The translations under genes and the position numbers were made by a program. The notes beneath the pieces are model-generated. The model saw only the letters and a list, made by a program, of their open reading frames with translations, made no database searches and was not told the DNA's origin. Below, one piece after another: positions 8,229 through 14,809 of a stretch of 64,000 nt of DNA. Numbering within the stretch: position 1 is the first letter of the stretch; each line of letters starts with the position of its first letter. Source of the stretch: an uncultured Eubacteriales bacterium (lineage in GTDB: Bacteria; Bacillota; Clostridia; Christensenellales; Aristaeellaceae); contig CACWLP010000020.1 in NCBI GenBank assembly GCA_902761755.1, forward strand, positions 1 through 64,000, written 5' to 3'.

Positions 8229-9461
8229 TCATGCGTTCAAAAGCTCCCGGGCCCGGGCGAGCAGCGCGTCCCGTTCGTTGGGCGTTTCCCCGCGCACCAC
8301 CTGCAAAAGCAGCCGGTCCAGCATTTGTCCGATCCCAGGGCCCCTGAGCCCCAGGGCGGAAAGATCCCGTCCGTTCACCGCCAGGTCCCGCAGGGAATGG
8401 CAGGCGTGCTCCCGGAGCAGTTCCCGCCGCCTTTCCTCCGCCAGCGCGGCGTCCCGCCCGGCGGCGTCCGGGTCCTCCCCGGCGGCGATCCTGTCCGCCC
8501 GTTGCAGGGCGATCAGGCTTTCCAGGCACTCCGAGCCCACCCGCGCCAGCATTTCCCATGCGTTCCCGGGCGTCACCCGGACGGGGGCGTTCGCAACCAG
8601 CGCCGCCGTGCGCTCTTGCAGGCTGTTGGACAGTTTCAGCTCCTTCATGGCAGCCCGGGCCGCGTCCCTGCCCAGGTCCATGAGCAGCGCCGCCCAGCGC
8701 GCCGCTTCCTCCCCGGGCGACGCGTCCACCCGGCAGCAGGCGCGGGTCCAGGCCGGGCCCTGCGTCAGCTCCGTCAGGCCCGGGACCGCCGCGGCGATCA
8801 CCTCCGGATAGCCCGCCAGCACCTGCCCGGCATCCTTCCCCAGCAGCAGCCCGCCCATTTCCGCGGCGATGCGCTCCCGGCTGATCGCTTTGAGCTGATC
8901 CCGGCGAACCCGGACGGCCCGGGCCGTCTTTTCCTCGATGGGAAACCCCAGCCGCGCGGAAAAGCGCAGCGCCCGCAGGATGCGCAGCCCGTCCTCCGAA
9001 AAGCGCGCTTCCGCCTCGCCCACGCACCGGATGATGCCCCGTCGGCAGTCCTCTTGACCCCCGAAGGGATCCACGATGCCCCGAAGAGGGGAATACGCCA
9101 TGGCGTTGACGGTGAAATCCCGGCGGGAAAGATCCTCCTCGACCCGGTCGGTAAAGCGCACGGAATCGGGGTGGCGGCCGTCGGAATACGCGCCGTCCAC
9201 CCGGAAAGTGGTGATCTCCAGGGGCATGCCGGATAGAATCACCGTCAGCGTGCCGTGCTGCACGCCGGTTTCGACGGTTCTTTCCGCCCGGAATACCCGC
9301 TGCATATCCGCCGGGGAAGCCGCGGTGCAGATGTCGTAATCGTGGGGCGCCGCGCCCAGCACCCAATCCCGCACGCAGCCGCCCACCGCATAAGAAGCGA
9401 ACCCCGCTTCCTCCAGCATCTCCAGCGCCCGGGCGACGGGCTGCGGCAGCTCAAAACGCAT
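8229..9461 (-). CDS. cca: CCA tRNA nucleotidyltransferase
   Basis: A 410-residue class II CCA-adding enzyme, which builds or repairs the 3' CCA of tRNAs. The polymerase head has GGCVRDWVLG and the metal-binding pair HDYDICTAA, with RRDFTVNAMAY and a neck motif EDGLRILRALRFSARLGF. An alpha-helical body follows from about residue 175. No HD phosphohydrolase motif is visible in the C-terminal half. The start has AGGAGGAA before it. A good promoter (TTGACA, 17 bases, TAAGAT) lies upstream and overlaps the divergent promoter of the next operon. Confidence 0.95.
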   Translation of the reverse strand: MRFELPQPVARALEMLEEAGFASYAVGGCVRDWVLGAAPHDYDICTAASPADMQRVFRAERTVETGVQHGTLTVILSGMPLEITTFRVDGAYSDGRHPDSVRFTDRVEEDLSRRDFTVNAMAYSPLRGIVDPFGGQEDCRRGIIRCVGEAEARFSEDGLRILRALRFSARLGFPIEEKTARAVRVRRDQLKAISRERIAAEMGGLLLGKDAGQVLAGYPEVIAAAVPGLTELTQGPAWTRACCRVDASPGEEAARWAALLMDLGRDAARAAMKELKLSNSLQERTAALVANAPVRVTPGNAWEMLARVGSECLESLIALQRADRIAAGEDPDAAGRDAALAEERRRELLREHACHSLRDLAVNGRDLSALGLRGPGIGQMLDRLLLQVVRGETPNERDALLARARELLNA

Positions 9462-9482
9462 AGAAAATTCCTCCTCGCCCCC

Positions 9483-9511
9483 ATCTTAATCGTTCCCGTT
9501 TGCCTTGTCAA
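9483..9511 (-). promoter_or_regulatory. cca promoter
   Basis: On the minus strand: TTGACA (plus coordinates 9506-9511), 17-base spacer, TAAGAT (9483-9488). Its -35 box shares five bases with the -35 box of the divergent plus-strand promoter. Confidence 0.8.
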
Positions 9512-9533
9512 TCCTTTGGTTTCATGGTAGAAT
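9505..9533 (+). promoter_or_regulatory. Promoter of the methyltransferase-barnase operon
   Basis: TTGTCA (9505-9510), 17-base spacer, TAGAAT (9528-9533). It is the only clear promoter before the five co-directional genes that end at the terminator near 14246. Confidence 0.75.
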
Positions 9534-9578
9534 AATTGCTGAAGGATTCAATGTTTATCCGTATGCGGAGGGATTGCC

Positions 9579-10061
9579 ATGGAGCCGCTGGAAGCCGTCG
9601 TCGCCGCCCGGGCCCTGCTGGCCGGAAAAACGCCCCTGAAAAAGGACTGCGGGCGTTCCTGCGGCGCGGCCTGCTGCCAGAGCGACGAGGACGGCCAGGG
9701 GGGCATGCTGCTCTTCCCCGGGGAGGACGCGCTGTACGATCCTCTGCCCGAAGGCTTCCGCATCGAACGGAACGACCAGGTGCTCCCCGGGGCGAAGCTG
9801 CTGATCTGCCAAGGGGATTGCAGCCGGGATGCGCGGCCCCTGGCCTGCCGGCTGTTCCCGCTGCTGCCTACCCGGGACGGCCCCGTGCCGGATCAAAGGG
9901 CTTGGGCGGTGTGCCCGCTGATGCGCTTCGGGCTGCGGGGCATGGACCCGGCGTTCGTTCAGGCGGTCCGGGAAGCAGGAGAGATCCTCTACGCCTGCCC
10001 GGAGCACGCGCGGTATCTGGACGCGCAGCACGCGTTCAACGCGCTGCTCACGCAGTGGTAA
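9579..10061 (+). CDS. Cys-rich YkgJ-like putative metal-binding protein
   Basis: A 160-residue soluble protein with a dense Cys cluster near the N-terminus (CGRSCGAACC, about residues 24-33). Further cysteines lie in CQGDCSRDARPLACRLFP and near AVCPL and ACPEH. The spacing resembles the YkgJ/UPF0153 zinc- or iron-chelating family, in which several Cys bind a metal centre, but the match is loose. First gene of the operon, 17 bases before the methyltransferase, with GGAGGG 7 bases before its ATG. A modification or redox role is possible but unproven. Confidence 0.6.
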   Translation: MEPLEAVVAARALLAGKTPLKKDCGRSCGAACCQSDEDGQGGMLLFPGEDALYDPLPEGFRIERNDQVLPGAKLLICQGDCSRDARPLACRLFPLLPTRDGPVPDQRAWAVCPLMRFGLRGMDPAFVQAVREAGEILYACPEHARYLDAQHAFNALLTQW

Positions 10062-10078
10062 AAGAAAGGAGATACGTC

Positions 10079-11302
10079 ATGCGCTGGGTACAAACGGTGT
10101 GCTGCCGGGAGATCCACGGGGACGGAAAAAGCGGCGAGATCCTGGTCCGGGACGCCCGGGGGGATTTTTCGCCCTGGCACGGCCAGGCCGCCTGCGTGTA
10201 CATGGACCCGCCCTTTATGACGGGCGAGGATTTTTATCTGCACATGCGGGTGGGCGAAGCGGGCTGGGAAACCGGCAAGGACGCCCTGGCGCTGCCCGCC
10301 TACCGGGATAAGTACGAAAGCCGGGAGGCTTACCTGGCCATGCTCCGGGACGCGGTGGAGAACGCCAGGGCGCTGCTCCGGGAGGACGGCTCCATGTTCC
10401 TGCATCTGGACAGCCGCGCCGCCGCCCACGCCCGCCTCCTGTGCGACGGGATCTTCGGCGAAAGCAATTTCGTCAACGAGATCATCTGGGCCTACCAGTC
10501 CGGCGGCCGCAGCATGAAGCGCTTTTCCCGCAAGCACGACGTGATCCTCTTTTACCGCAAATCCCGCCGCCAGTATTTCGATATCACTTCCGTGCCCCTG
10601 CCCCGCAGCGAAAACCGGCAGAACCACATGCGCAAATGCGTGGACGAGGACGGGCGCACCTACCGCACCATCCAGTCCGGCGGCAAGACCTATACCTATT
10701 ACGACGACGATCCGGTGTATCCCGGCGACGTGTGGGCGGACGTGAGCCACCTGCAGCAGAAGGATCCCCAGCGCACCGGCTACGACACCCAGAAGCCCCA
10801 GGCGCTGCTCAGCCGCATCATCCGCTGCGCCTCCCGCCCGGGGGACCTGGCTGCGGATCTGTTTTCCGGCAGCGGCACCACGGCGGTGACCGCGGCCCTG
10901 GAGGGACGGCGGTTCCTGGCGTCCGATCTGTGCCCGCTGTCCCTCGCCGTCGCCCGCAAGCGATTGCTGGACACCGCCATGACCGTATCGGCGCCCACGC
11001 TGGAAACCCCCGCCTTCCTCAGCGCCCAGATCATCCCCGGCATCGCCTATCACGACGTACGGCTGCTGGATTACGCCCCGGAAACGGGCGCCGTACAGGG
11101 CCTGGACGCGGTGGATCAATGGTCCGTGGGGTTCCTCCGGGACGGCGTTTTCTACGCCCAGGCCAACGCCGCCCGGCGCAAGCAGACCCCGGCGCTGCCC
11201 TCCCTGCTGCAGCTGCCTCAGCTGCGGGGCACCCCCGCCATCCTGATTTCGGACGTGTACGGCGAACGCCGCCTGTGGCGGCTTGAGGAGGACGAGAAAT
11301 GA
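10079..11302 (+). CDS. DNA methyltransferase (N4-cytosine/N6-adenine type)
   Basis: A 407-residue class beta DNA methyltransferase: the catalytic motif DPPF (DPPFMTG, about residue 43) comes before the AdoMet motif DLFSGSGTT (about 260). The internal region resembles type III Mod proteins (VNEIIWAYQSGGRS, KHDVILFYRK, DTQKPQALLSRII). The last ~110 residues carry no motif I recognise and may be target recognition. No restriction enzyme gene adjoins, so it is an orphan here. AAAGGAGA lies 6 bases before the ATG at 10079. Its stop overlaps the barnase start by four bases (ATGA), so the two are translationally coupled. Confidence 0.88.
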   Translation: MRWVQTVCCREIHGDGKSGEILVRDARGDFSPWHGQAACVYMDPPFMTGEDFYLHMRVGEAGWETGKDALALPAYRDKYESREAYLAMLRDAVENARALLREDGSMFLHLDSRAAAHARLLCDGIFGESNFVNEIIWAYQSGGRSMKRFSRKHDVILFYRKSRRQYFDITSVPLPRSENRQNHMRKCVDEDGRTYRTIQSGGKTYTYYDDDPVYPGDVWADVSHLQQKDPQRTGYDTQKPQALLSRIIRCASRPGDLAADLFSGSGTTAVTAALEGRRFLASDLCPLSLAVARKRLLDTAMTVSAPTLETPAFLSAQIIPGIAYHDVRLLDYAPETGAVQGLDAVDQWSVGFLRDGVFYAQANAARRKQTPALPSLLQLPQLRGTPAILISDVYGERRLWRLEEDEK

Positions 11303-12120
11303 AAAAGAATCCCTGGCTGAAGCGGCTGCTGCTGGTGCTGGCAGCGCTGGCGCTCATTTTTGCGGTGCGGGAGGCGGCGCCCCGGTTCCTGGGCGCGCCC
11401 CTGTCCCCCGCCGCCAATGCCCAGGCGGAGCAAAAGCCCTTCCAGACCCTGAAAAAAGGCGGCTCCGGGGCGGAGGTGCGCAAAGCCCAGGAAGCCCTCA
11501 AATCCCTGGGCTATTACGGCGGCCGCACGGACGGCAATTTCAGCCGCGCCTTTGAGGAGGCCGTCATTGCCTTCCAGAAGGATTTCGGCCTGACGCCGGA
11601 CGGGAAGATCGACGAGGAAACCTATCTGTTCCTCCTTTCCGAGCTGCCCGCCGCCTCCCCGTCCCCCGCGCCGTCCCCCGCGGAAAAGAAGCCCACCGCC
11701 GCGCCGGGCAGGCCCACGGCGGCCCCCGCGCCGTCCCCCGCGCCCACGGAGGAACCCTTCGTCGTTCAGTACGAGGATTATTCCGACAAGGACCACGTGG
11801 CCGCGTACCTCCATCTGTTCGGCGAGCTGCCCCCCAATTACATCACCAAGAAGGAAGCCACGGAGCTGGGCTGGGTGAACAGCTGGGGCAACCTGTGGAA
11901 GGTGGCCCCGGAAATGAGCATCGGCGGCGATTACTTCGGCAACTATGAAGGCCAGCTGCCCACGGCCCGGGGCCGGAAATACTACGAATGCGATATCGAT
12001 TACGACCCCCTGGAAAACGGCGGCCGGCGCAACGGCAAGCGCATCATCTACAGCAACGACGGGCTGATTTTCTACACCGAAGATCACTATAACACCTTTG
12101 AGGAGATCACGTTCCAATGA
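11299..12120 (+). CDS. Barnase-family ribonuclease with peptidoglycan-binding domain (toxin)
   Basis: A 273-residue protein in four parts: a signal anchor or signal peptide (about 9-23, possible cleavage near ANAQAE at 39-44), a PG_binding_1 domain (about 48-115, with the signature LKSLGYYGGRTDG), a Pro/Ala/Ser linker (about 118-152), and a C-terminal guanyl-specific RNase of the barnase type (about 165-273). Residues matching the barnase active site are present: Lys184 (NYITKKEA), Glu230 (YYECDIDY), Arg244, Arg248 and His263 (EDHYNTF). The RNase should be active, and the protein is exported or membrane-anchored by prediction. Its stop overlaps the barstar start (ATGA). The wall-binding module suggests display on or release from the cell wall. 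Confidence 0.93.
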   Translation: MKKNPWLKRLLLVLAALALIFAVREAAPRFLGAPLSPAANAQAEQKPFQTLKKGGSGAEVRKAQEALKSLGYYGGRTDGNFSRAFEEAVIAFQKDFGLTPDGKIDEETYLFLLSELPAASPSPAPSPAEKKPTAAPGRPTAAPAPSPAPTEEPFVVQYEDYSDKDHVAAYLHLFGELPPNYITKKEATELGWVNSWGNLWKVAPEMSIGGDYFGNYEGQLPTARGRKYYECDIDYDPLENGGRRNGKRIIYSNDGLIFYTEDHYNTFEEITFQ

Positions 12121-12404
12121 AAAGAGTACAGCTTTCCGCCGCCCGGTGGCTCTCCGCTGCCCAGGCCCACGGGGCCCTTGCCGCCGCGCTGGATTTCCCG
12201 GAATACTACGGGAAGAACCTGGACGCCCTGCACGACTGCCTCACCGACCTGAACGATACCCAGCTGGTGATCGAGGACTGCGCCGCGGCCGCCCGGCAGA
12301 TCGAGAACTGGGGCGGTTTCCTCAGCGTATTTTTCGATTCCGCCGCGGAAAACCCCCGGCTGCAGATCCGGCTGCTGCCCGGCAACGGAGATTACGGGGA
12401 CTGA
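12117..12404 (+). CDS. Barstar-family RNase inhibitor (immunity protein)
   Basis: A 95-residue protein closely resembling barstar: FPEYYGKNLDALHDCL matches the barnase-binding helix, with Tyr30, Tyr31, Asp36 and Asp40 matching the key contact residues. Barstar's Trp38 is replaced by His39. It has no signal peptide, so it should stay in the cytoplasm and neutralise RNase before export or after re-entry. It overlaps the barnase gene by four bases, the classic toxin-immunity arrangement with matched translation. Confidence 0.93.
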   Translation: MKRVQLSAARWLSAAQAHGALAAALDFPEYYGKNLDALHDCLTDLNDTQLVIEDCAAAARQIENWGGFLSVFFDSAAENPRLQIRLLPGNGDYGD

Positions 12405-12420
12405 CGAAAAGAGGTAAACC

Positions 12421-14193
12421 ATGGCCCAGACCAGAATGAAGCTCCGGGATCTGCTCCGGCGCTTTCTGCCTTATTACGGAAAATACAAAAAAGAGATCGC
12501 CTTCGATCTGTGCTGCGCGCTGCTGACCACGGGATGCGAGATCATTTTCCCCCTGATCGTCCGCGCCATCACCAATCAGGCGGTAAAGGATTACACTGCC
12601 ATCACCGCCGATTGGGTGCTGAAGCTGGGGGCGCTGTATCTGCTCCTTAGGATCATCGACACCGCGGCCAACCATTTCATGCAGTACTGGGGCCACATCA
12701 CCGGCGCCAAGCTGGAAACGGACATGCGCACGGACCTGTTCAACCACCTGCAGCAGCTGTCCTTCTCCTATTACAACGAAACCAAGGTGGGCCAGATCAT
12801 GGCCCGCATCACCTCGGACCTGTTCGATGTCACCGAATTCGCCCATCACTGCCCGGAGGAGATCCTGATCTCCTCCGTCAAGATCACGGCGTCCTTCATC
12901 ATCCTGTGCGGCATGAACGCGCAGCTGACGCTGATGATCTTCGTGCTGCTGCCCTTCATGCTGGTGGGCACCCGCTATTTCCGCCGCAAGATGCGCGCCG
13001 CCTTCAAGGACGCGCGGCACCAGGTGGGCGAGATCAACGCCCAGGTGGAGGACAGCCTGCTGGGCGTGCGGGTGGTGCGCTCCTTCGCCAACGAGGACCT
13101 GGAGATCGAAAAATTCGGCGAGGGGAACAGAAAGTTTTTCGGTTTCAAGAAGAAGCAATACCGCTACATGGCCGGGTTCAACACGGTGACCCGGCTGTTC
13201 GACGGGCTGATGTACATCACGGTGGTGGTGATGGGCGCGCTGTTCCTCAAGGACGGCAGGATCGGCGTGGGGGAATACACGGCGTACCTGCTCTATATTT
13301 CCACCCTCCTCACCTCCATCCGCCGCATCGTGGATTTCTCCGAGCAGTTCGAGCGCGGCATGACGGGCATCGAGCGCTTCTGCGAGGTCATGGACGCCCC
13401 GGTGGAGATCAGGGACAATCCCGGCGCGAAGGACATCGGGGAGGTCCGGGGCGAGGTGTGCTTTGAAAAGGTGGGCTTCCATTATTCCGACGACCCCGCC
13501 CACGAGGTGCTCTCCCAGGTGGACATGCGCATCCTGCCGGGCCAGAACGTGGCGCTGGTGGGTCCCAGCGGCGCGGGGAAAACCACCCTGTGCAACCTGA
13601 TCCCCCGGTTTTACGACGTGACCTCCGGCCGCATCACCATCGACGGCCGGGACATCCAGGGGATCACCCTGCATTCCCTCCGCAACGCCATCGGCATGGT
13701 GCAGCAGGAGGTGTACCTCTTCTCCGGCACCGTGCGGGAGAATATTTCCTACGGCAAGCCCGGCGCTACCGACGAAGAGATCGTCCTGGCCGCCAAACGC
13801 GCCGGGGCCCACGAATTCGTATCGAAGCTGCCCAACGGCTACGATACCTACATCGGTGAGCGGGGCGTGAAGCTCTCCGGCGGGCAGAAGCAGCGGCTGT
13901 CCATCGCCCGGGTGTTCCTGAAGAACCCGCCCATCCTGATCCTGGACGAGGCCACCAGCTCCCTGGACAACGAAAGCGAGCTGCTGGTGCAGAAATCCCT
14001 GGAGGAGCTGGCCAAGGGCCGCACCACCTTCACCATCGCCCACCGGCTCACCACCATCCGCAATGCCGACGTGATCTGGGTGCTGACGGAAAAGGGCATC
14101 GAGGAAATGGGCACCCACGAAGAGTTGATGAAAAAGGGCGGCATCTATTATTCCCTGTACAGCCTGTACGCCGGGAAGGGCAGCGCGGACTGA
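12421..14193 (+). CDS. ABC exporter, fused membrane and ATPase domains (MsbA-like)
   Basis: A 590-residue half-transporter: six membrane helices (about 25-320) followed by an ATPase with Walker A GPSGAGKTT, signature [13 protein letters not shown], Walker B ILILDEATSSLD and the switch His in IAHRLTT. It should dimerise and export lipids, drugs or peptides. No C39 peptidase domain is present, so it is not a peptide-processing exporter. It starts 16 bases after barstar and ends the operon at a strong terminator. Export of the barnase is unlikely by this route, since that protein has its own signal; substrate unknown. Confidence 0.92.
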   Translation: MAQTRMKLRDLLRRFLPYYGKYKKEIAFDLCCALLTTGCEIIFPLIVRAITNQAVKDYTAITADWVLKLGALYLLLRIIDTAANHFMQYWGHITGAKLETDMRTDLFNHLQQLSFSYYNETKVGQIMARITSDLFDVTEFAHHCPEEILISSVKITASFIILCGMNAQLTLMIFVLLPFMLVGTRYFRRKMRAAFKDARHQVGEINAQVEDSLLGVRVVRSFANEDLEIEKFGEGNRKFFGFKKKQYRYMAGFNTVTRLFDGLMYITVVVMGALFLKDGRIGVGEYTAYLLYISTLLTSIRRIVDFSEQFERGMTGIERFCEVMDAPVEIRDNPGAKDIGEVRGEVCFEKVGFHYSDDPAHEVLSQVDMRILPGQNVALVGPSGAGKTTLCNLIPRFYDVTSGRITIDGRDIQGITLHSLRNAIGMVQQEVYLFSGTVRENISYGKPGATDEEIVLAAKRAGAHEFVSKLPNGYDTYIGERGVKLSGGQKQRLSIARVFLKNPPILILDEATSSLDNESELLVQKSLEELAKGRTTFTIAHRLTTIRNADVIWVLTEKGIEEMGTHEELMKKGGIYYSLYSLYAGKGSAD

Positions 14194-14204
14194 ACGGCGG
14201 CATA

Positions 14205-14254
14205 AGAAAAACGGCAGCCGGGAGAAGGCTTCTCCCTCGCTGCCGCTTCTTTTA
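14205..14254. terminator. Bidirectional intrinsic terminator
   Basis: A stem GGCAGC-CGGGAGAAG with CTTCTCCC-TC-GCTGCC (about 14208-14244), A-rich before and T-rich after. It ends the toxin operon on the plus strand and the cyclo-ligase operon on the minus strand. Confidence 0.88.
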
Positions 14255-14809
14255 TTTCGTATAAATTTCCGTTTCTGTAATGACCGCGTCCATCTCCACG
14301 TCCGTTTCGTCCATGGGAATGCCGTCGGTCAGCAGTTTTTCAAAGCACAGGCAGATTTTTTTCGCCCGCGTCTCCGGCAGAAACGCGTCGTAATACCCGC
14401 CGCCGTGGCCCAGGCGGCTCCCATCCCGTCCCGCCGCCACGCAGGGGATCAGCGCCAGGTCGATCTCCTCCGGCGGCACGGCTTCCGCCTCCGGCCCCGG
14501 GGCGGGGATGCCCAGGCGGCCGGGGAGGAGTTCCGCCCGGCTGCGGATCGCCGCCGCCTCCATCTGGGGCGGTTTTTCACACCGGGGCACGCAGACGCGC
14601 TTTCCATCCGCCAGCGCCCGGCTGATGAGGGCGGCCGTATCCGGCTCCAAGGGCATGCTGACAAACAAAAACACCGTGCGGGCCTGCCGGTATGCTTCCA
14701 GCGCCAGCACCCGGTCCCGGATGGCCGCGCTGTTTTCCGCCCGCTCCCGGGCGGTCATGCCCTCCGCGATCTTTCGGGCGCGAAGGCGCAGCGCTTCCTT
14801 TTCCGTCAC
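14252..14809 (-). CDS. 5-formyltetrahydrofolate cyclo-ligase
   Basis: A 185-residue member of the 5-FTHF cyclo-ligase family, converting 5-formyl-THF to 5,10-methenyl-THF with ATP. The C-terminal motif RLGHGGGYYDAFL is the nucleotide and substrate loop of the family, and length fits. It starts at a GTG that overlaps the stop of the upstream M42 gene (GTGA). It is the last of four same-strand genes that overlap or nearly touch (14252-17861), probably one operon. Confidence 0.9.
   Translation of the reverse strand: MTEKEALRLRARKIAEGMTARERAENSAAIRDRVLALEAYRQARTVFLFVSMPLEPDTAALISRALADGKRVCVPRCEKPPQMEAAAIRSRAELLPGRLGIPAPGPEAEAVPPEEIDLALIPCVAAGRDGSRLGHGGGYYDAFLPETRAKKICLCFEKLLTDGIPMDETDVEMDAVITETEIYTK

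What the first reader, a model, noticed from the sequence alone, without database searches (positions are those of the whole stretch)
9505..14246. Five-gene operon: Cys-rich protein, DNA methyltransferase, wall-binding barnase, barstar, ABC exporter
A single promoter and terminator enclose five same-strand genes. Methyltransferase-barnase and barnase-barstar each overlap by four bases (ATGA), so translation is coupled. A toxin-immunity pair is normally a stand-alone unit or sits with a secretion system; a DNA methyltransferase translationally coupled to an RNase toxin is unexpected. It could be a defence or competition locus in which methylation status and RNase release are linked, or simply a stable neighbourhood. 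Gene identities are established by motif; the joint function is inference.
Basis: partly seen in the sequence, partly recalled or inferred. Interest (0 to 1): 0.82.

Follow-up and report, generated by a model that had tools for sequence, protein, structure and literature searches.

The report
Wall-bound RNase behind a DNA methylase
In one genus of uncultured bacteria, several of them from rumen samples, the genes for a probably wall-anchored RNA-cutting enzyme and its inhibitor sit tightly coupled behind a cysteine-rich protein gene and a DNA methylase gene; the four-gene unit is real and conserved, but a joint function is unproven and the fifth gene, an exporter, is only a local neighbour.

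Summary
Anatomy confirmed: Cys-rich protein, DNA methyltransferase (MT), PG_binding-barnase and barstar, with exact ATGA overlaps at 11299-11302 and 12117-12120, and an ABC exporter 16 nt downstream. Relatives redraw the unit. In the window's genus (29 genomes), MT and barnase adjoin in 27 of 27 assembled junctions; the gap is -4 to +6 in 26, with AGGAGG at the MT 3' end in 24. The promoter is conserved in 15 of 15 upstreams aligned. The exporter is not part of the unit: next to barstar in 0 of 26 other testable genus loci. Outside the genus it falls apart: Cys-MT is the wider pair (adjacent in 80 of 119 listed genomes with both), while MT and barnase adjoin in 11 of 106, all 11 of this genus. 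PG_binding_1 on barnase is also genus-specific in the sample (14 of 15 versus 0 of 115). Most likely a surface-anchored RNase with its cytoplasmic inhibitor, appended to a solitary-methyltransferase operon: shared expression, separate functions. A methylation-linked toxin or defence locus is not excluded but has no direct evidence.

The parts
9505..9533 (+). sigma-70-type promoter-like site, TTGTCA-17-TAGAAT with extended -10 TG; read on the other strand TTGACAA could serve the divergent CCA-adding enzyme gene
   Evidence: CCTTGTCAA and TGRTANNAT kept in 15 of 15 genus upstreams aligned
9579..10061 (+). Cys-rich protein, 160 aa, 8 invariant Cys in 32 aligned relatives; no Pfam family (YkgJ-like is a resemblance from memory)
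   Evidence: adjacent to MT in 80 of 119 listed family genomes with both
10079..11302 (+). N6_N4-type DNA methyltransferase without a restriction enzyme beside it, 407 aa; motif IV DPPF near the N-terminus, motif I region LFSGSGTT C-terminal (motif names and beta-class order recalled)
11299..12120 (+). PG_binding-barnase: N-terminal hydrophobic stretch, PG_binding_1, Pro-rich linker, RNase domain with the catalytic residues
11464..11625 (+). PG_binding_1 domain (aa 56-109)
11806..12108 (+). barnase-type Ribonuclease domain (aa 170-270)
12117..12404 (+). barstar, inhibitor, 95 aa
12421..14193 (+). ABC exporter (best NCBIfam match MsbA, below its cut-off); co-directional neighbour in this genome, not part of the conserved unit
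14212..14260 (+). hairpin plus T-rich tail, probable terminator

Best explanation
A pair that is widespread in the family (Cys-rich protein + solitary DNA methyltransferase) had a barnase-barstar pair attached directly downstream in one genus. The four genes share one conserved promoter-like site and are spaced for coupled translation (shown by sequence: overlaps or near-overlaps, and ribosome-site-like motifs inside the upstream gene; one transcript and coupling itself are inferred). The barnase is exported by its N-terminal hydrophobic stretch and held at the wall by PG_binding_1, where it digests RNA; barstar stays in the cytoplasm and neutralises enzyme that has not left (inferred from family knowledge). 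The use of the RNase is probably phosphate or nucleoside scavenging from outside RNA, with harm to neighbours possible. MT and Cys protein act on their own target; the RNase is a co-expressed passenger. The ABC exporter is a genome-specific neighbour.
For: Unit kept in the genus: 27 of 27 assembled junctions, with sharp edges and a conserved promoter-like site. Cys-MT is wider: MT in 164 of 200 and Cys in 173 of 200 family genomes, adjacent in 69 of 108 listed genomes outside the genus with both. Barnase and barstar go with each other, not with MT: of 200 genomes 140 have both, 2 barnase only (G002, G059), 4 barstar only (G107, G144, G159, G167), 54 neither (compared by hand from the tables). 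Barnase also sits directly behind other housekeeping genes elsewhere: a SPOUT_MTase gene (L186, L200, L201) and dnaN (L182, L191, L194) (one member of each cluster scanned), which fits a passenger. E73, R87 and H102 equivalents intact in 15 of 15 genus copies examined. All 15 have a hydrophobic stretch before the RNase domain and 14 of 15 PG_binding_1. In genus g17 barstar is followed by a PNP_UDP_1 (nucleoside phosphorylase superfamily) cluster member in 5 of 5 loci (one member scanned), which points to nucleoside use. Balifase (PMC5021464, passages seen) is an extracellular RNase in one operon with its inhibitor and is induced by phosphate starvation.
Against: A pure passenger might be lost or drift away in some genomes; 27 of 27 with a ribosome-site-like motif suggests that shared expression is selected. 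In the barnase tree the 15 genus copies are not one clade: it needs 3 changes, with G030 and the G115/G164 pair outside the main group, on weak forks, so one attachment event is neither shown nor ruled out. In G030 the link is looser: gap 68-83 nt with a stable hairpin between, and no PG_binding domain. R83 equivalent is Ala in 2 of 15 genus copies. Scavenging versus competition is not resolved. No RNA, protein, methylation or activity was measured.
Confidence: 0.6

Rival explanations
1. Wall-displayed toxin with immunity: the PG-bound barnase is a weapon against neighbouring cells and barstar is self-immunity; coupling to MT only sets dosage. (Not exclusive of the best explanation as to anatomy; it differs in the use of the RNase.)
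For: Toxin-then-immunity order; simple barnase-barstar pairs are described as a possible incipient toxin-immunity order (PMC3482391, passages); PG_binding_1 in 14 of 15; only 2 of 142 genomes with barnase lack barstar.
Against: No delivery module and no variable toxin tips seen: PG_binding and Ribonuclease only in 15 of 15 scanned, same model found in 28 of 29 genomes. In some genera barstar is far from barnase: about 1.0 Mb in G091 and 1.5 Mb in G185, each with a single match of both families. 11 of 41 other family barnase loci had no barstar within 400 nt. Phosphorylase-family gene next door in g17.
Confidence: 0.25
2. Functional link: methylation by MT controls the operon, or MT level sets RNase dose, so that DNA methylation state and surface RNase are tied.
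For: Genus-wide kept spacing with AGGAGG at the end of MT in 24 of 27; sharp edges of the conserved unit.
Against: In the rest of the family MT and barnase are apart: 95 of 106 listed genomes with both; MT target unknown; no methylation data.
Confidence: 0.1
3. Inherited neighbourhood without selection: the order is kept only because the genus shares one ancestor.
For: Seen in one genus only; the 29 genomes are not independent.
Against: MT proteins of other genus members are 70-74% identical to the window's and the surrounding order has decayed where testable: CCA-Cys 17 of 22, c42-CCA 3 of 9, barstar-exporter 0 of 26. A genome-wide rate was not measured.
Confidence: 0.2
4. Anti-phage or abortive-infection locus with a restriction-modification logic.
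For: MT matches PADLOC type II and III methyltransferase models.
Against: No DNA-cutting enzyme in the unit or among the window neighbours scanned; the RNase has an N-terminal hydrophobic stretch that suggests export; MT is found in 164 of 200 family genomes; no PADLOC model matched barnase or barstar.
Confidence: 0.04

Closest known systems
Barnase/barstar, binase and balifase of Bacillus (RNase PF00545; inhibitor PF01337)
   Same: Same RNase and inhibitor families; K27, E73, R83, R87, H102 equivalents present in the window (residue numbers' roles recalled); balifase and its inhibitor share an operon (PMC5021464, passages).
   Different: Here the RNase has PG_binding_1 and a Pro-rich linker, barnase R59 is Tyr, and the pair is spaced for coupling to a DNA methyltransferase.
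Simple barnase-barstar toxin-immunity pairs and polymorphic toxins (PMC3482391)
   Same: Toxin-then-immunity gene order; that paper notes peptidoglycan-binding domains such as PGB1 in several toxin polypeptides (passages).
   Different: No delivery module and no exchange of toxin tips seen here.
Solitary DNA methyltransferases (solved sequence relatives RsrI, MboIIA, EcoP15I Mod, CcrM; CamA as a functional parallel)
   Same: Sequence relatives in the PDB and lineage-wide conservation. CamA, an orphan methyltransferase of C. difficile, was seen only as a search listing with the start of the abstract.
   Different: Paired with a Cys-rich protein; target sequence unknown; no orthology to CamA or CcrM was tested.

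Membership tests
Barnase (N1/T1 RNase) | PF00545 over the curated cut-off | tested here: met
   65.8 bits, cut-off 24
Barnase (N1/T1 RNase) | catalytic Glu73, Arg87, His102 (roles recalled; positions from the alignment) | tested here: met
   15 of 15 genus copies examined; Lys27 15 of 15, Arg83 13 of 15
Barnase (N1/T1 RNase) | guanyl-preferring RNase activity, secretion | not testable with these tools
   hydrophobic stretch before the RNase domain in 15 of 15 is only consistent with export
Barnase-barstar pair | linked or co-occurring PF01337 inhibitor | tested here: met
   linked in 15 of 15 genus loci; 140 of 200 family genomes have both, 6 have one only
Polymorphic toxin system | dedicated trafficking module and exchangeable C-terminal toxins | tested here: not met
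   only PG_binding and Ribonuclease families matched in 15 of 15; same domain found in 28 of 29 genus genomes, none in G402
Type II toxin-antitoxin module | cytoplasmic toxin, usually antitoxin gene first | tested here: not met
   toxin gene first; hydrophobic N-terminus; localisation itself not testable
Restriction-modification system | cognate restriction endonuclease beside the MT | tested here: not met
   window neighbours scanned are a CCA-adding-type enzyme, DUF3792, folate cyclo-ligase and an M42 peptidase; neighbours in other genomes were not scanned for this
Beta-class amino-DNA methyltransferase | motif IV (DPPY/F) before motif I (FxGxG) | tested here: met
   DPP invariant in 35 of 35 rows, motif I C-terminal of it; class name recalled
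YkgJ-like Cys-cluster proteins | match to the Pfam family | tested here: not met
   0 families for the window protein; among 32 members at E up to 5 only weak hits, the commonest DUF3109 in 6 at best 0.16

The most novel reading that the evidence does not exclude
In this genus a solitary DNA methyltransferase and a wall-displayed RNase form one regulated unit: methylation of the shared divergent promoter, or the rate of methyltransferase translation, sets how much RNase is put on the surface, so that chromosome methylation state and surface RNA degradation rise and fall together.
Probability: 0.1. Interest if true: 0.75.

Novelty: new variant of a known kind. Interest (0 to 1): 0.4.

Why it matters
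It gives a natural experiment: barnase and barstar occur across a bacterial family at many places, and in one genus the RNase is wall-binding and kept, with its own ribosome-site-like motif, behind an unrelated methyltransferase. If the link is functional it would be a route from epigenetic state to surface nuclease; if not, it is a well-documented passenger pair under another operon's control. The Cys-protein/methyltransferase pair is itself a candidate module worth testing; no description of it appeared in the listings, which is a thin search.

Tried and rejected
Structure prediction of the Cys protein and MT was tried and is switched off, so no fold search was made. The idea that the exporter secretes the barnase was dropped: its matches lie elsewhere in the genus (in G115 and G390 on the same contig some 4 kb away on the other strand). 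The idea of a defence locus was dropped. Rfam: 0 matches at gathering threshold in 9400-14400. A barnase tree of 101 domains (38 of 76 named domains used) puts the genus copies near those of genus g7 of the same family and three named records, with few columns and 46 of 98 inner branches open, so transfer or descent is left open; the named loci were chosen by similarity to the query, which biases identity comparisons. Paper searches on barnase with methyltransferase, operon, polymorphic toxin, rumen or peptidoglycan-binding showed no description of this arrangement in their listings (open-access library; passages of two papers seen, PMC3482391 and PMC5021464, no paper read whole).

Limits: place tables are truncated; one search used 150, 138 and 150 genomes typed from the displayed rows. 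Many genomes are incomplete drafts (the window's own 73%). G402 shows neither MT nor barnase, and in G401 the assembly is broken at MT, so 2 of 29 genus genomes do not count for the junction. Some of the 115 other barnase ORFs scanned for PG_binding start at a contig edge. The 75 further named loci are mostly Clostridia; whether any belongs to the window's family was not checked, and the flanks of several are short.

Full report
WHAT IS THERE. Five co-directional ORFs lie between 9579 and 14193: a 160-aa Cys-rich protein, a 407-aa methyltransferase (PF01555, 2.1e-38), a 273-aa PG_binding_1 + Ribonuclease protein, a 95-aa barstar and a 590-aa ABC exporter. The MT/barnase and barnase/barstar overlaps are exact ATGA. 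A promoter-like site lies at 9505-9533 and a hairpin with a T-rich tail at 14212-14260. Flanking genes on the other strand are a CCA-adding-type enzyme and a folate cyclo-ligase. The Cys protein has no Pfam match; 32 aligned relatives share 8 invariant cysteines, which suggests metal or Fe-S binding (inference).

THE UNIT IN THE GENUS. The search holds 29 genomes of the genus. The RNase was found in 28: 27 long matches and the shorter G030 copy; G402 has only a PG-binding match. The MT-barnase junction is assembled in 27 (window, L142-L151, L242-L258 without L256), and the two genes adjoin in all 27. The gap runs from -4 to +6 in 26 of 27; G030 is the exception, with 68 or 83 nt depending on the start taken and a hairpin of its own. 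AGGAGG lies at the end of MT before the barnase start in 24 of 27, and a similar site at the end of barnase before barstar in 25 of 27. The upstream region holds CCTTGTCAA and TGRTANNAT at constant spacing in 15 of 15 aligned. Edges, where testable: Cys-MT 24 of 24, MT-barnase 26 of 26, barnase-barstar 27 of 27, CCA-Cys 17 of 22, c42-CCA 3 of 9, barstar-exporter 0 of 26. An HTH-protein gene lies on the same contig as barnase in 20 of 27 genomes with both, downstream of barstar in the loci mapped, some with an M28 peptidase gene between. The window genome has that HTH gene on another contig (C3) and the exporter in this place.

OUTSIDE THE GENUS. In 200 family genomes (the genus included) MT is found in 164, the Cys protein in 173, barnase in 142 and barstar in 144. 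From the displayed rows (150, 150 and 138 genomes) Cys and MT adjoin within 400 bp in 80 of 119 genomes with both; MT and barnase adjoin within 600 bp in 11 of 106, all of this genus. Next closest are G148 (2.3 kb, opposite strand) and five genomes of g17 (4.8-6.3 kb). MT reaches other families of the order (45 of 200 genomes, 12 of them in the family). In 20 of the 33 loci outside the family that I fetched, the Cys profile hits beside MT in 5, on the opposite strand, and barnase in 0. None of 75 further named barnase loci (mostly Clostridia) has MT in the held flanks, and 70 of 75 have barstar near barnase. PG_binding_1 is in 14 of 15 genus barnases, 0 of 41 other family barnases and 0 of 74 named ones (L087 of the 75 was left out).

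HOW IT MOST LIKELY WORKS. Shown: gene order, spacing, RNase active-site residues, hydrophobic N-terminus, PG-binding domain, inhibitor pair. Inferred: one transcript, coupling, export, wall anchoring, RNA digestion outside, barstar as cytoplasmic guard. Use: scavenging is favoured because g17 barnase-barstar is followed by a phosphorylase-superfamily gene in 5 of 5 loci and because a Bacillus relative is induced by phosphate starvation (PMC5021464, passages); competition is the main rival (PMC3482391, passages). MT looks like a solitary methyltransferase (solved relatives RsrI, MboIIA, EcoP15I Mod, CcrM); its target is unknown.

AGAINST THIS READING. Retention in 27 of 27 is stronger than a careless passenger would show, so co-expression may be selected. 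The genus barnases do not form one clade in a poorly resolved tree, so one attachment event is not shown. 11 of 41 other family barnase loci have no barstar within 400 nt, so the pair is not always linked. The counts rest on draft genomes of one genus that share ancestry. No activity, transcript or methylation was measured.

VERDICT. Observation confirmed; interpretation partly supported. A genus-specific, probably wall-binding variant of the secreted barnase-barstar kind, kept behind a wider Cys-protein/methyltransferase pair; the exporter does not belong. The confidences given to the rivals overlap, since they concern partly different questions (use of the RNase, and selection on the linkage).

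Noticed in passing
L190 (=L043), L192 (=L049), L193 (=L054), L195, L196, L197, L199 (same family) and L078 (named): Proteins with two barnase domains in one ORF: in 8 of 8 one domain keeps the E73, R87 and H102 equivalents and the other has lost the His (and Glu to Gln in 3); an active-looking RNase fused to a pseudo-RNase, with barstar within 400 nt in 8 of 8.
   Followed up: partly
L186 4241-5207, L200 5088-6158, L201 4293-5396; L182 5196-6871, L191, L194: In other genera barnase lies directly downstream of a SPOUT_MTase (RlmH-like, name recalled) gene, or of dnaN (one member of each cluster scanned).
   Followed up: partly
G091 contig 1 (1481316 and 484657), G185 contig 1 (1642761 and 169203); G174, G044, G120 on different contigs: Barnase and barstar are both present but far apart or on different contigs, while over 200 genomes they almost always co-occur.
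   Followed up: partly
L173 6968-8215, L176 7552-8799: Two MT copies of genus g20 read DPPG instead of DPPF/Y at motif IV, so they may be inactive.
   Followed up: no
L150 8258-8345: G030 has a 10-bp inverted-repeat hairpin between MT and a barnase that lacks the PG-binding domain.
   Followed up: partly
window 9483-9533: The shared element TTGTCAA/TTGACAA may serve as -35 for both the operon and the divergent CCA-adding enzyme gene.
   Followed up: partly
window 11944-11946 (aa 216 of the barnase): Barnase Arg59, a barstar contact as recalled, is Tyr in 15 of 15 genus copies, 38 of 48 other family domains and 68 of 76 named domains, so the inhibitor interface may differ.
   Followed up: no
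named barnase loci L067-L141: 40 of 75 named barnase ORFs carry a lipobox-like motif by a simple pattern, against 8 of 41 other family and 0 of 15 genus ORFs: surface tethering may be common but by different means.
   Followed up: no
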